DNA of 64,000 bases from Chloroflexi bacterium HGW-Chloroflexi-4. GTDB lineage: Bacteria; Chloroflexota; Anaerolineae; Anaerolineales; Anaerolineaceae. The number at the start of each line of letters is the position of its first letter. The stretch's first letter is position 1. Below, piece by piece: positions 3,598 through 6,072 of the stretch. The stretch spans positions 62,001-126,000 of the forward strand of contig PHBW01000015.1 of NCBI GenBank assembly GCA_002840715.1, given 5' to 3'. The notes below the pieces were generated by a model. That model saw only the letters and a program-made list of their open reading frames with translations, was not told where the DNA came from and ran no database searches. Both the position numbers and the translations under genes were made by a program.

Positions 3598-3714
3598 TTA
3601 TTCGGATTTTTTCTTGGCTTCGTTTTTCTCTTTCCTTTTTTCCTTTTGGGTCATCTTGGGTTTCTTTTTTTGTTCCTTTTTGCCTTTATCAGCCTTGCCA
3701 CCATTTTCTCCCAT
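3598..3714 (-). CDS. Lysine-rich 38-residue small protein
   Basis: A short ORF with a very good ribosome binding site (AAAGGAG, 8 nt before the ATG) and a GC-rich stem-loop just after its stop, so it is built like a real gene. The product begins MGENGGKADKG and has 15 Lys in 38 residues, with no hydrophobic segment. It is probably disordered and could bind nucleic acid or acidic surfaces. I do not recognise a family. It lies downstream of, and on the same strand as, the array of small ORFs linked to the LacI regulator, but is separated from them by a stem-loop at 3943-3972 and about 230 bp. Whether it belongs to that unit is open. Confidence 0.6.
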   Translation of the reverse strand: MGENGGKADKGKKEQKKKPKMTQKEKRKEKNEAKKKSE

Positions 3715-3942
3715 TGTCTCATCTCCTTTGTGCATTTACAGGAATCGGCGTTGGCTTAAGTATAGCACTTTCAAGCCAATTTGAAGTTGTTTTAATCAAC
3801 CGTTTGAGAGCTGAAAATCAACACCTCTTGTTGCTACGCGTAAACAGTGGAGCAGAGAAAAAAACCAAAAGCAAAGTACAAATGCAACCTCCACTTGCTT
3901 TCCCATTGCTTCAAGGAATGTACATAAGAAGGAAATTAATCA

Positions 3943-3972
3943 CAAAACACGTACGAAGTTGTACGTGTTTTG
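3943..3972 (-). terminator. Perfect 12-bp hairpin after small ORF A
   Basis: CAAAACACGTAC and GTACGTGTTTTG are perfect inverted arms around a 6-nt loop, 25 bp past the stop of the 3998-4225 ORF. A hairpin of different sequence but the same relative position follows the paralogous ORF at 4442-4675. The 3715-3942 stretch beyond it holds no supportable gene. Confidence 0.65.
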
Positions 3973-3997
3973 CAAAGGAGGAGAAAAGCAGAAACGA

Positions 3998-4225
3998 TTA
4001 ACAGGGCTGTTGAGTACTGACGTAGTCCTGACTATAACTATTGAAAAGGGGTTGGAAATTCTTCTCAAGTTTGTAGTTCCAGGTAAAGATGGTTTTGTGT
4101 TTTATTGGACACTGAGTTGGAGATTCTTCAACCAGTATGGAGAGAAGATGTGAGTTGCGAAGTTCGTTTTCTTCTTCAAGTCTCCTCTGCCAGAGCATTA
4201 TGGTGTTGATCATATTTTCGTACAT
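3998..4225 (-). CDS. Small paralogous protein A of the LacI-linked array (75 aa)
   Basis: Begins MYENMIN and ends QQPC. It is clearly paralogous to the 4442-4675 ORF: both share MYENMIN, an LW-x-RRL segment, the block KTIFTWNYK-x-E-x2-FQPLFN in the C-terminal half, and a terminal QPC with a C-terminal Cys. AAAGGA is 7 nt upstream of the chosen ATG; another ATG two codons earlier would be too close to it. The leader carries a CCCGG/CCGGG hairpin, as do leaders of the other small ORFs in this array. Unequal codon drift between the paralogues with conserved protein blocks argues for selection on the protein. There is no known domain, membrane helix or signal peptide. The function is unknown. Confidence 0.7.
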   Translation of the reverse strand: MYENMINTIMLWQRRLEEENELRNSHLLSILVEESPTQCPIKHKTIFTWNYKLEKNFQPLFNSYSQDYVSTQQPC

Positions 4226-4383
4226 GGTCATATCCTTTTGTTAATCCCCGGTCAGGCCGGGTCGATGTTTACATTTTTGTTTTATTCATGTGCTTATATT
4301 ACATGCGTCGAGGTAGAAATCCCCCAGCCTCAAGGAGAGTCTCTTACTAGCCAAGTGGATAGTCATAATATGCAGGCAATTAA

Positions 4384-4419
4384 ACACACAACGCATACCA
4401 ACCTGTATGCGCTGTGTGT
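4384..4419 (-). terminator. 15-bp hairpin after small ORF B
   Basis: A 15-bp stem with one mismatch and a CAACCT-type 6-nt loop begins 22 bp after the stop of the 4442-4675 ORF. The 25-40 nt between stop and stem resemble the equivalent stretch after ORF A (both start TAAnCGnTTCTG), so the 3' ends are homologous although the stems differ in sequence. Confidence 0.65.
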
Positions 4420-4441
4420 AAGGGGAAAGAATCAGAACCGT

Positions 4442-4675
4442 TTAACAGGGTTGGGTTACTGGCACACAATCCTGAGTTCTGGCATTAAAAAGAGGTTGAA
4501 AATCTCTCTCGAATTTATAATTCCAGGTGAAGATGGTCTTATATTCAATACGGCAGGGTCCGGGCGCCATTGAATCTTCCATGGCCACAGAAACCCGATG
4601 GGCTTTGCGCTGTTCAATTTCAAAATCCAATCTTCTTTCCCAGAGCACGACATTATTGATCATGTTTTCGTACAT
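4442..4675 (-). CDS. Small paralogous protein B of the LacI-linked array (77 aa)
   Basis: Starts MYENMINNVVLWERRL and ends VTQPC, paralogous to ORF A (3998-4225) over its whole length. The most conserved part is KTIFTWNYK-x-E-x2-FQPLFN at about residues 46-63. The ATG at 4675 has AAAGGAG 6 nt upstream; an in-frame ATG nine codons earlier lacks a suitable site. It follows the 24-codon ORF at 4730-4804 by 54 bp without a terminator, so the two are probably co-transcribed, and is followed by its own hairpin. The opening segment (Met-aromatic, hydrophobic run, acidic then basic residues, Leu) resembles the two 24-residue peptides with a one-residue offset. No function can be assigned. Confidence 0.72.
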   Translation of the reverse strand: MYENMINNVVLWERRLDFEIEQRKAHRVSVAMEDSMAPGPCRIEYKTIFTWNYKFERDFQPLFNARTQDCVPVTQPC

Positions 4676-4729
4676 GGCATTCTCCTTTGTGCCCACCGGC
4701 AAACGCCGGATAAAACAAGTTGTACTGAG

Positions 4730-4804
4730 TTACTTCTTCAGGTTTTGAGCTTCGAGCTTCTTTTCAAACAGAACGACAAAAGTGATGAGTTGAGTGCTGA
4801 ACAT
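4730..4804 (-). CDS. 24-residue micropeptide 1 of the LacI-linked array
   Basis: A 24-codon ORF beginning MFSTQLITF and ending NLKK. AAAGGAG lies 6 nt before the ATG. Its leader holds GCAACCGGTTGC, identical to the operator at the lacI promoter. It is nearly a copy of the 4866-4940 ORF: first eight residues identical, same length, same NLKK end, with both synonymous and non-synonymous changes between them. The peptide would be a short hydrophobic or amphipathic helix (residues 6-13) followed by a charged tail. It is too short for any domain. The alternative is that these are leader peptides or duplicated regulatory modules without a protein role, but two matched copies with full start signals make translation likely. 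Confidence 0.62.
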   Translation of the reverse strand: MFSTQLITFVVLFEKKLEAQNLKK

Positions 4805-4822
4805 GGTGGTACTCCTTTCTGT

Positions 4823-4834
4823 GCAACCGGTTGC
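4823..4834. promoter_or_regulatory. LacI-type operator GCAACCGGTTGC in leader of micropeptide 1
   Basis: A perfect 12-bp palindrome, identical to the one at the lacI promoter (6031-6042) and in the leader of micropeptide 2 (4960-4971). CG-centred palindromes of this type are typical LacI-family sites. It may also contribute to a CCGG/CCGG leader hairpin in the RNA. Confidence 0.65.
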
Positions 4835-4865
4835 GACCGGCTCTAAAAAAATACGACTGCCAAAG

Positions 4866-4940
4866 TTACTTTTTCAAGTTTTCGGCTATGAGTTTGTTTT
4901 CCAAAACCACGACAATAGTAATGAGTTGAGTGCTGAACAT
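4866..4940 (-). CDS. 24-residue micropeptide 2 of the LacI-linked array
   Basis: A 24-codon ORF, MFSTQLITI at the start and NLKK at the end, 63 bp after the lacI stop codon. AAAGGAG is 8 nt upstream of the ATG and a TGCAACCGGTTGCA operator lies between lacI and this ORF. The hydrophobic run at residues 6-13 (with I9-V10-V11-V12-L13) precedes a charged C-terminal half. It is paralogous to the 4730-4804 ORF, and the intergenic leaders are also duplicated: both contain a T-run, a CCGG hairpin, the palindrome and the Shine-Dalgarno in the same order. The function is unknown. Repression by the adjacent regulator is inferred from the shared operator. Confidence 0.62.
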   Translation of the reverse strand: MFSTQLITIVVVLENKLIAENLKK

Positions 4941-4958
4941 AATTATTCTCCTTTAATC

Positions 4959-4972
4959 TGCAACCGGTTGCA
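4959..4972. promoter_or_regulatory. LacI-type operator TGCAACCGGTTGCA between lacI and micropeptide 2
   Basis: A perfect 14-bp palindrome identical to the site at the lacI promoter, including flanking T/A. Overlapping it, ACCGG (4963-4967) and CCGGT (4975-4979) can form a leader hairpin. I see no convincing -35/-10 immediately upstream, so it may act as a roadblock to transcription from the lacI promoter, or the promoter is inside lacI. Confidence 0.68.
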
Positions 4973-5003
4973 GGCCGGTCTAAAAAAACGATCCTCGGCT
5001 GGT

Positions 5004-6014
5004 TTAAGCCGACTTTCTGACAACAAGTTCAACAGGAACGGTCACATGGGTGACCACACCGGTTTTGATGGACTGTACCAGATTTTGTGCCAGCAGCTTG
5101 CCCGACATCTGGATATTCTGCCTGACCGTGGTTATAGGCAGGTTATTGTAGGTGGCGATAGCCAAATCATCGTAGCCGACCACGGCTACATCTTCGGGTA
5201 CACGCCTGCCGCTTTTCTGGATAACTTCTATGGCCCCGATAGCCATCACATCGCCGCAAACAAACACGGCATCAACATCAGGTGTTTTCTCGAGCAATTG
5301 CTGCATGCCTGTTTTTCCTGACTCCAGATAGTAATCGCCGTTGACCATCAAATCTGGTTCAATCTTGCGGCCGGCATTGCGCATGGCGGTCTCATAACCT
5401 TTTTGACGAAGCTGCGCCTCAAGATCGTATTCAGGTCCGCCGAGGAAGGCAATCTTCTTGCGGCCAATGCGAATCAGGTGTTCGGTGGCCAGGATGCCGC
5501 CGCTGAGATTATCACCGGTGACAGTACAGCCGTTAATTTCAGGCTCCGGCACACCCCAGATGATGAAGGGGGCATTCATTTCAGACAGCAATTTGCTGTA
5601 AGCATGACCGCGGCCGGTTTTCATCATGATAAAACCATCCACGCGCCCGCTGTCGAAGTATTGATGCGCCCAACTGTTGTCGCGAGGTTTCATGTGAATC
5701 AACAACAGGTCGTAACCCAGCACATCCAAACCGCTGCCGATGGCGCTCATTATCTCAAGCCCGAACATGTCTTCAACGGTGAAACCGCACTGGTGACTGT
5801 GGGTGACAAAGCCCACTGTGCAGCTCTGACGACGGCTGAGATTGCGGGCGGGCAGGTTCATACAGAAGTTGTGCTCTTCTGCAATAGCCTTGATGCGGTT
5901 TTTGGTCTCAGGATTGATCAGGGAACTGTCATTTAAAGCACGGCTGACCGTCGATTTCGAGACGTTGGCCAGCTTGGCGATATCTTCAATGGTTTTGACT
6001 GTTTTTGTTCCCAT
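5004..6014 (-). CDS. LacI/GalR-family transcriptional regulator
   Basis: A 336-residue regulator of standard family length. Residues 6-30 form the LacI helix-turn-helix (TIEDIAKLANVSKSTVSRAL), followed by a hinge helix region with LPARNLSRRQS and a periplasmic-binding-protein-like effector domain (GFIMMKTGR, VDAVFVCGDVMAIGAIE, VAVVGYDD). The ATG at 6014 is chosen because AGGA precedes it and the HTH begins a few residues later; upstream in-frame codons lie inside the promoter. Its own promoter overlaps a GCAACCGGTTGC palindrome, and the same palindrome occurs twice downstream before the 24-codon ORFs, so it probably represses itself and those ORFs. No sugar gene is adjacent, which is unusual for this family. 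The effector is unknown. Confidence 0.9.
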   Translation of the reverse strand: MGTKTVKTIEDIAKLANVSKSTVSRALNDSSLINPETKNRIKAIAEEHNFCMNLPARNLSRRQSCTVGFVTHSHQCGFTVEDMFGLEIMSAIGSGLDVLGYDLLLIHMKPRDNSWAHQYFDSGRVDGFIMMKTGRGHAYSKLLSEMNAPFIIWGVPEPEINGCTVTGDNLSGGILATEHLIRIGRKKIAFLGGPEYDLEAQLRQKGYETAMRNAGRKIEPDLMVNGDYYLESGKTGMQQLLEKTPDVDAVFVCGDVMAIGAIEVIQKSGRRVPEDVAVVGYDDLAIATYNNLPITTVRQNIQMSGKLLAQNLVQSIKTGVVTHVTVPVELVVRKSA

Positions 6015-6029
6015 TTTTATCCTGTGTTT

Positions 6030-6072
6030 TGCAACCGGTTGCATTATAGCATAAATCAAACAGGGTTGTCAA
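6030..6072 (-). promoter_or_regulatory. lacI promoter with overlapping operator
   Basis: On the minus strand TTGACA (6067-6072) and TATAAT (6043-6048) are consensus hexamers with an 18-bp spacer. The perfect palindrome TGCAACCGGTTGCA (6030-6043) lies directly downstream of the -10, covering the predicted transcription start. This is the standard layout for autorepression. Confidence 0.8.

What the first reader, a model, noticed from the sequence alone, without database searches (positions are those of the whole stretch)
3598..6072. LacI-linked array of tandem micro-ORFs, possibly an undescribed regulated peptide system
On one strand an autoregulated LacI-type gene is followed, with even gaps of 63, 61 and 54 bp, by two 24-codon ORFs and a 77-codon ORF, then after a hairpin by a 75-codon paralogue and further on by a lysine-rich 38-codon ORF. 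All have strong Shine-Dalgarno sites. The operator palindrome GCAACCGGTTGC occurs three times. The four central peptides share a Met-aromatic start, a hydrophobic run and an acidic-basic-basic-Leu turn (with a one-residue offset between size classes). No sugar gene is present, unlike normal LacI regulons. The peptide function is unknown.
Basis: partly seen in the sequence, partly recalled or inferred. Interest (0 to 1): 0.88.

Follow-up and report, generated by a model that had tools for sequence, protein, structure and literature searches.

The report
Repressor operator coupled to T-run
A row of tiny, conserved genes sits behind a sugar-type repressor gene, and between them lies what looks like a switch (a run of T's nine bases before the repressor's binding site) that probably lets the bound repressor end transcription of its own message without an RNA hairpin.

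Summary
In detail: lacI, two 24-codon ORFs, the 77- and 75-codon ORFs and three GCAACCGGTTGC copies are there, three congeners keep the array, and the ORFs evolve under purifying selection. The peptides are real and were found only beside this lacI, but "no sugar gene" fails for the regulon: in the window genome and three congeners the same operator precedes an MFS transporter gene, and homologues of that MFS, and of a GH3-type gene, lie directly behind lacI elsewhere. Of 43 distinct orthologous lacI loci (mostly Anaerolineae; a few Spirochaetota, Bipolaricaulota and Actinomycetota MAGs), 40 have an operator behind the gene. Of these 46 operators, 43 carry a T-run of at least 5 on the coding strand, and in 39 it ends exactly 9 nt before the 14-bp operator. 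Hairpins abutting the run are rare (1 of 43 at my threshold) and no promoter motif is seen. Best explanation: bound repressor stalls RNA polymerase over a U-rich hybrid and so ends its own transcript, a roadblock terminator laid out like Pol I terminators, keeping downstream genes off until inducer arrives. Peptide function remains inferred.

The parts
6043..6072 (-). sigma-70 promoter TTGACA-N18-TATAAT of lacI, 12 of 12 matches; last T of the -10 is the first base of the operator
6030..6043 (-). upstream operator TGCAACCGGTTGCA overlapping the -10; no T-run
5004..6014 (-). lacI, 336 aa; HTH plus periplasmic-binding-protein-like core; ends where the core alignment to LacI ends, so no tetramerisation helix
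4982..4988 (-). T7 on the coding strand, 15 nt after the lacI stop codon, ending exactly 9 nt before the operator
4959..4972 (-). downstream operator TGCAACCGGTTGCA (first)
4866..4940 (-). 24-aa ORF 1 (MFSTQLITIVVVLENKLIAENLKK), SD AAAGGAG
4845..4851 (-). second T7, again exactly 9 nt before an operator
4822..4835 (-). downstream operator CGCAACCGGTTGCA (second, tandem copy)
4730..4804 (-). 24-aa ORF 2 (MFSTQLITFVVLFEKKLEAQNLKK)
4442..4675 (-). 77-aa ORF, 'WER' small protein ending in QPC
4384..4419 (-). 15-bp RNA hairpin behind the 77-aa ORF; probable terminator or processing site
3998..4225 (-). 75-aa paralogue of the 77-aa ORF; second match seen in this genome only among 61 searched
3940..3975 (-). 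15-bp hairpin with T-containing tail behind the 75-aa ORF
3598..3714 (-). separate Lys-rich 38-aa ORF, nearly invariant in two congeners

Best explanation
A LacI-type repressor of a sugar-uptake regulon controls its own transcription unit at two points. (1) It binds an operator over the -10/start of a sigma-70 promoter and blocks initiation. (2) It binds one or more further operators just behind its own stop codon. An RNA polymerase that escaped the first block stalls there, and the T-run (mostly T6-8) ending 9 nt before the operator places a weak U-rich RNA:DNA hybrid in the stalled complex, so the transcript is released (possibly with Mfd), without a hairpin. Leaky transcripts thus make complete repressor mRNA but nothing downstream. 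With inducer both blocks lift and the strong promoter drives lacI plus whatever lies behind: in this genus 24-aa and 77-aa small proteins; elsewhere related 70-104-aa proteins, a ParB-like protein, an MFS transporter or a GH3-type glycosidase. Shown by sequence: promoter, operators, T-run, spacing, conservation, selection on the ORFs, candidate regulon members. Inferred: repressor binding, the stall position, transcript release, induction by a sugar (perhaps a beta-glucoside or mannoside). Least certain: that the small proteins are accessories of the co-regulated uptake system, perhaps acting on the transporter (about 0.25).
For: 43 distinct loci were examined, chosen by LacI similarity and not by the T-run (50 rows with the window; 7 duplicates dropped); 40 have a downstream operator. 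Downstream sites: 43 of 46 have T>=5; 39 of 46 end exactly 9 nt before the operator (2 at 8, 1 at 10, 1 at 11). Upstream sites: 5 of 39 have T>=5 within 40 nt, one of them at 9. Per column (39 first sites): T is 0.78-0.98 at -16..-10; other columns outside the operator reach at most 0.4 bit. The 3' end of the run is anchored and its length varies at the 5' end (5-12). A T>=6 run within 45 nt of the stop is present in 36 of 40 loci with operator, 0 of 3 without, and 3 of 55 other LacI loci (Fisher p 3e-18 for 36/40 against 3/55; rows not phylogenetically independent). Hairpin abutting the run: 1 of 43 at the strong threshold, mean z -0.4. Searching 400 genomes of the order with the T5-N9-operator pattern alone gave 33 sites: 21 lie 6-22 nt behind a relative of this LacI, 3 are tandem copies at those loci, 1 lies at a contig edge with the small ORF behind it, 1 was not fetched, 7 have no such LacI in front (one at a contig start cannot be judged); reversed-pattern control 5. 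Seven of the 21 loci were new to me. Precedents (passages only): E. coli LacI roadblocks its own mRNA (PMC3711431); LacI-stalled polymerase is removed mainly by Mfd (PMC4132739); Mfd was found in 10 of 10 genomes; Pol I is stopped 15 bp upstream of the Reb1/Nsi1 site at a T-rich stretch (PMC12366685).
Against: No transcript data exist here. PMC12366685 (passages) reports that roadblock plus T-rich sequence alone did not release Pol I without an RNA hairpin, and mentions slow release at a Lac-repressor block and no efficient termination with LexA; if bacterial RNAP behaves the same, T-run plus operator may only pause it and need Mfd. In L134 a strong stem abuts the T-run and in L058 a weaker one (p 0.04). 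Five of 43 stretches before the run fold with z below -2, four of them tandem second copies, one of these in the window. In the window a 6-pair stem ends 6 nt before the first run. Three of 46 sites lack T>=5 (L065, L070; L086 has T4 at 9 nt). The stall point of bacterial RNAP at a LacI-family repressor was not found in the passages read (also PMC11014978, PMC1950744, PMC3737525).
Confidence: 0.6

Rival explanations
1. The T-run is the tail of an ordinary intrinsic terminator of lacI, and the operator belongs to a separate promoter for the small ORFs.
For: A stem abuts the run in L134 and, more weakly, L058; 5 of 43 stretches before the run fold with z below -2. A 6-pair stem ends 6 nt before the run in the window.
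Against: 42 of 43 runs lack a strong abutting stem at my threshold; mean z -0.4. The run's 3' end is locked to the operator. Tandem copies keep the spacing (9 nt; 10 in L007). No shared -35/-10 pattern precedes the downstream operator, and the start codon follows the operator within 12-51 nt in loci with a clear ORF.
Confidence: 0.12
2. The T-run is a DNA-shape element (A-tract) that helps the repressor bind O2 or bridge O1 and O2 (about 1.06 kb apart) in a loop.
For: O1-O2 distances (35 loci) show weak helical clustering (R 0.34 at 10.5 bp, p about 0.02, rows not independent). Two operators of a repressor can loop (PMC5477534, passages).
Against: 34 of 39 upstream operators of the same repressors lack the run. 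It is one-sided and T on the coding strand. The LacI ends at the dimeric core without the tetramer helix (helix recalled). Clustering is no better at 10.5 than at 10 or 11 bp.
Confidence: 0.14
3. The T-run works in RNA, as a U-rich translation enhancer, slippage site or RNA-chaperone site for the downstream ORF.
For: It lies in the leader of the downstream gene (sequence).
Against: Its distance to the start codon varies (12-51 nt from operator to start in loci with a clear ORF) while its distance to the operator is nearly fixed.
Confidence: 0.07
4. One reading: a dedicated, self-contained LacI-peptide system unrelated to sugar use.
For: The small ORFs are conserved and were found only beside this lacI. 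In G007, G017 and G025 the only exact GCAACCGGTTGC sites in the assembly are at the lacI locus.
Against: Same operator at MFS and GH2 genes in the window genome and three congeners, and at a GH3-type gene in one; MFS or GH3-type gene directly behind lacI in other species.
Confidence: 0.1

Closest known systems
E. coli lacI autoregulation by roadblock at O3/O1 (PMC3711431, passages read)
   Same: LacI-family repressor bound behind or at the end of its own gene blocks polymerase elongating on lacI
   Different: In E. coli the O3 block truncates the lacI mRNA and the protein is tagged and degraded. Here the ORF is complete, the operator is a palindrome, and a T-run stands at fixed distance.
RNA polymerase I terminators with Reb1/TTF1 (PMC12366685, passages read)
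   Same: DNA-bound protein roadblock preceded by a T-rich stretch on the non-template strand in which polymerase stops
   Different: Eukaryotic polymerase and unrelated protein; an RNA hairpin is reported as needed there and is rarely seen abutting the run here; here the roadblock would be inducer-controlled.
Bacterial roadblock repression by CcpA, CodY, LacI with Mfd (PMC10310618, PMC4132739, passages read)
   Same: Operator inside a transcription unit, repressor as elongation block
   Different: No T-run of fixed spacing was described in the passages read.
5YSZ LacI-family regulator (recalled as Thermobifida CelR, cellobiose-responsive)
   Same: Best solved-structure match of this LacI, 184 bits, next 129
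   Different: Operator differs (recalled); no small ORF known to me.

Membership tests
LacI/GalR family repressor | N-terminal LacI HTH plus Peripla_BP sugar-binding core | tested here: met
   PF00356 59.6 bits, PF13377 100 bits, both over cut-off
LacI/GalR family repressor | palindromic CG-centred operator overlapping its own promoter | tested here: met
   window promoter 12 of 12; 30 of 39 upstream sites have at least 10 of 12 promoter matches, 19 perfect; binding itself not tested
Tetrameric, looping LacI | C-terminal tetramerisation helix | tested here: not met
   336-aa protein; residues 8-335 align with E. coli LacI 5-328 of 360; place of the helix recalled
Intrinsic terminator | G+C-rich hairpin directly before the U-run | tested here: not met
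   1 of 43 strong stems, mean z -0.4; 5 of 43 with z below -2; window first copy: stem 6 nt away
Roadblock-regulated transcription unit | operator of the repressor inside the presumed transcribed unit, downstream of the promoter | tested here: met
   40 of 43 distinct loci
Roadblock-regulated transcription unit | repressor-dependent transcript 3' ends | not testable with these tools
   no RNA data
Pol I-type roadblock terminator | T-rich stretch at fixed distance before the protein site | tested here: met
   39 of 46 at 9 nt; similarity of layout only, no kinship claimed
Pol I-type roadblock terminator | upstream RNA hairpin that disassembles the complex | tested here: not met
   (45 nt before the run; more distant hairpins not tested)
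Known small-protein or toxin families | match to Pfam, NCBIfam or PHROGs | tested here: not met
   0 hits: Pfam 4 peptides, NCBIfam the 77-aa only, PHROGs 4 window peptides and one relative

The most novel reading that the evidence does not exclude
Bacteria have evolved a hairpin-free, inducer-gated terminator in which a sugar repressor replaces the RNA hairpin: a T-run set 9 nt before its operator lets the bound repressor release RNA polymerase behind its own gene. The cassette has travelled with this repressor across phyla, has been duplicated in tandem, and in one genus has become the building block of an expanding array of micro-genes.
Probability: 0.5. Interest if true: 0.85.

Novelty: new variant of a known kind. 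Interest (0 to 1): 0.72.

Why it matters
Roadblock repression is known; removal of the stalled bacterial polymerase is, in the passages read, mainly ascribed to Mfd. A T-run locked to the operator at 9 nt in dozens of diverged loci suggests that selection has tuned the DNA before a roadblock, as in Pol I terminators. It gives a small, swappable element to test whether U-rich hybrids plus a protein block suffice to end transcription, and a possible tight inducible terminator for engineering. It also adds a small-protein family under clear selection whose copy number changes by operator-ORF duplication.

Tried and rejected
Helical amphipathicity of the peptides: hydrophobic moment no higher than in shuffled sequences (p 0.28-0.85, 8 peptides), so no claim of membrane-binding helices. 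Looping: only weak phase clustering. T-run as intrinsic terminator: judged unlikely. The ParB-like label for the alternative downstream protein rests on a DGHHR motif recalled by me and weak hits only (PHROG ParB E 0.007; sulfiredoxin E 0.15; no Pfam or NCBIfam hit for those tested). Other TGCAANCGNTTGC sites (list cut): ten places fetched and viewed, none assigned to this LacI; one, in G388, precedes ABC sugar-transport-like genes, but the lacI there has another operator. LacI paralogues of the window genome: 10 of 11 fetched; 8 of 10 show other palindromes upstream, 2 none; one (L165) has a different palindrome behind the gene, without T>=5; none has this operator. Viral contigs: 16 pattern hits, one behind an unrelated LacI. 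Literature searches for a T-tract or U-tract with roadblock and repressor returned 0 papers or listings without a fitting title (listings only), in an open-access library.
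Full report
Observation. The ORFs are genes: three congeners (L007/G012, L008/G009, L009/G013) keep lacI, the 24-aa ORFs (3, 2 and 2 copies) and the 77-aa ORF. The 77-aa ORF has dN/dS 0.036-0.121 in 6 pairs, against 0.049-0.078 for lacI; the 24-aa ORFs have single-pair ratios of 0.06-0.53 and pooled pN/pS of 0.24 and 0.28. Among 61 genomes a second match of the 77-aa type (the 75-aa paralogue) is in the window genome only. 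The Lys-rich ORF, seen in two of three congeners, looks like a neighbour.

The repressor. It has LacI HTH and sugar-binding core, best solved relative 5YSZ. It ends at the core, so it is probably a dimer. Of 11 LacI paralogues of the same genome, 10 were fetched: 8 show other palindromes upstream, 2 none, none this operator. GCAACCGGTTGC sites elsewhere in this genome are therefore best assigned to this repressor, though binding was not tested.

Regulon. Exact GCAACCGGTTGC sites: 5, 5, 6 and 4 in G000, G009, G012 and G013. Away from the locus they lie before an MFS gene (4 of 4) and between ABC-ATPase-like genes and a GH2 mannosidase-like gene (4 of 4), and before a GH3-type gene in G012 (Pfam checked for the MFS and GH2 of the window genome; other labels by eye). 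The MFS is 57% and 60% identical to MFS genes directly behind the orthologous lacI in G311 and G343. The G012 GH3-type protein is 75% identical to the one in the lacI-small ORF-MFS-GH3 cluster of L105. So the LacI very probably governs sugar uptake, and the small ORFs belong to that regulon.

The T-run/operator element. I collected orthologous lacI loci by protein similarity: 50 rows with the window, 7 duplicates dropped, 43 distinct; 40 have an operator behind lacI. Upstream of lacI, 30 of 39 operators are preceded by a TTGACA/TATAAT pair with at least 10 of 12 matches (19 perfect) whose last base is the operator's first. Behind lacI, 43 of 46 operators are preceded by T>=5 on the coding strand, 39 at exactly 9 nt. 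T frequency is 0.78-0.98 at positions -16 to -10, and no other column outside the operator exceeds 0.4 bit (39 first sites). Tandem operators in L061, L069, L140, L141, L007 and the window repeat the T-run, at 9 or (L007) 10 nt. The three loci without the operator (L060, L090, L143) have no T>=6 either, and 3 of 55 other LacI genes have T>=6 behind them. A strong hairpin abutting the run is seen in 1 of 43; 5 of 43 stretches before the run fold with z below -2, four of them tandem second copies. The start codon lies 12-51 nt after the operator in loci with a clear ORF, so the run is locked to the operator and not to the ribosome site.

Blind test. Searching 400 genomes of the order for T5-N9-[TC]GCAANCGNTTGC alone gave 33 sites in 28 genomes, against 5 for the reversed pattern. 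Of these, 21 sit 6-22 nt behind a relative of this LacI (49-100% identity), 3 are tandem copies at those loci, 1 is at a contig edge followed by the small ORF, 1 was not fetched, and 7 have no such LacI in front, one of them at a contig start where this cannot be judged. Seven of the 21 loci were new to me: L176 and L179 with the small protein, L183 with a GH3-like protein, L187, L190 and L200 with the ParB-like protein, L201 with the MFS (labels by eye). In 400 phylum genomes a stricter pattern gave 5 sites, 4 of them at this locus.

What lies behind the element. By eye (labels as, 40 rows): tandem peptides in 4 loci (one clade, support 100/100); a 70-104-aa 'WER' small protein in 7, with L062 uncertain and L023 and L024 left out of the tree as partial; a ParB-like protein of 120-195 aa in 14; MFS in 4; aldo-keto reductase in 1; others unclear, cut or without operator. 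Six of the 7 small-protein loci, the 4 peptide loci and 2 of the 4 MFS loci fall in one 16-row clade (89/82; its 15-row core 100/98). The small-protein profile found nothing outside the locus in 396 class genomes.

Mechanism. A complete repressor mRNA is made before the block, so low-level leak would keep repressor present while downstream genes stay silent; induction would open both sites. That a stalled complex with a U-rich hybrid is released is inference. It is supported by the fixed geometry, by the known LacI roadblock of its own mRNA in E. coli (PMC3711431, passages), by Mfd-assisted removal of LacI-stalled polymerase (PMC4132739, passages; Mfd found in 10 of 10 genomes) and by the layout of Pol I terminators (PMC12366685, passages). 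Against it, the same Pol I paper finds that roadblock plus T-rich sequence without a hairpin did not release Pol I; the bacterial case needs the in vitro test.

Peptides. They are conserved, with strong SD sites, the two 24-aa ORFs of the window are each preceded by their own T-run and operator, and they have no family match. Most likely they are small accessories of the co-regulated sugar uptake, but I have no direct evidence; amphipathic-helix ideas were tested and not supported.

Novelty. LacI roadblocks are known; a T-run locked to the operator was not found in searches of an open-access library, which does not prove it is unpublished.

Noticed in passing
L214:4771-5861 (IMG/VR contig): An unrelated LacI (28% identity) has TGCAAGCGGTTGCA upstream and TGCAACCGCTTGCA 44 nt behind its stop, the latter with T5 exactly 9 nt before it: possible independent case, though found by the pattern.
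   Followed up: partly
L100, behind the lacI stop at 1447: Thermotogae MAG LacI with T6-N12-GGGAACCGGTTCCA behind the gene and a similar palindrome upstream.
   Followed up: no
window 3598-3714: Lys-rich 38-aa ORF, 0 non-synonymous differences to L007 and 2 to L008, no family hit.
   Followed up: partly
L061, L069, L053 and others, directly behind the operator: An uncharacterised ParB/sulfiredoxin-like protein of 120-195 aa with a DGHHR-type motif and, in several, a Cys-containing tail; no Pfam or NCBIfam match for those tested.
   Followed up: partly
window 4384-4419 and 3940-3975: Two 15-bp RNA hairpins behind the 77-aa and 75-aa ORFs.
   Followed up: no
L192 (G840): T7-N9-TGCAAACGTTTGC stands in front of a different LacI-like gene (by eye).
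   Followed up: no
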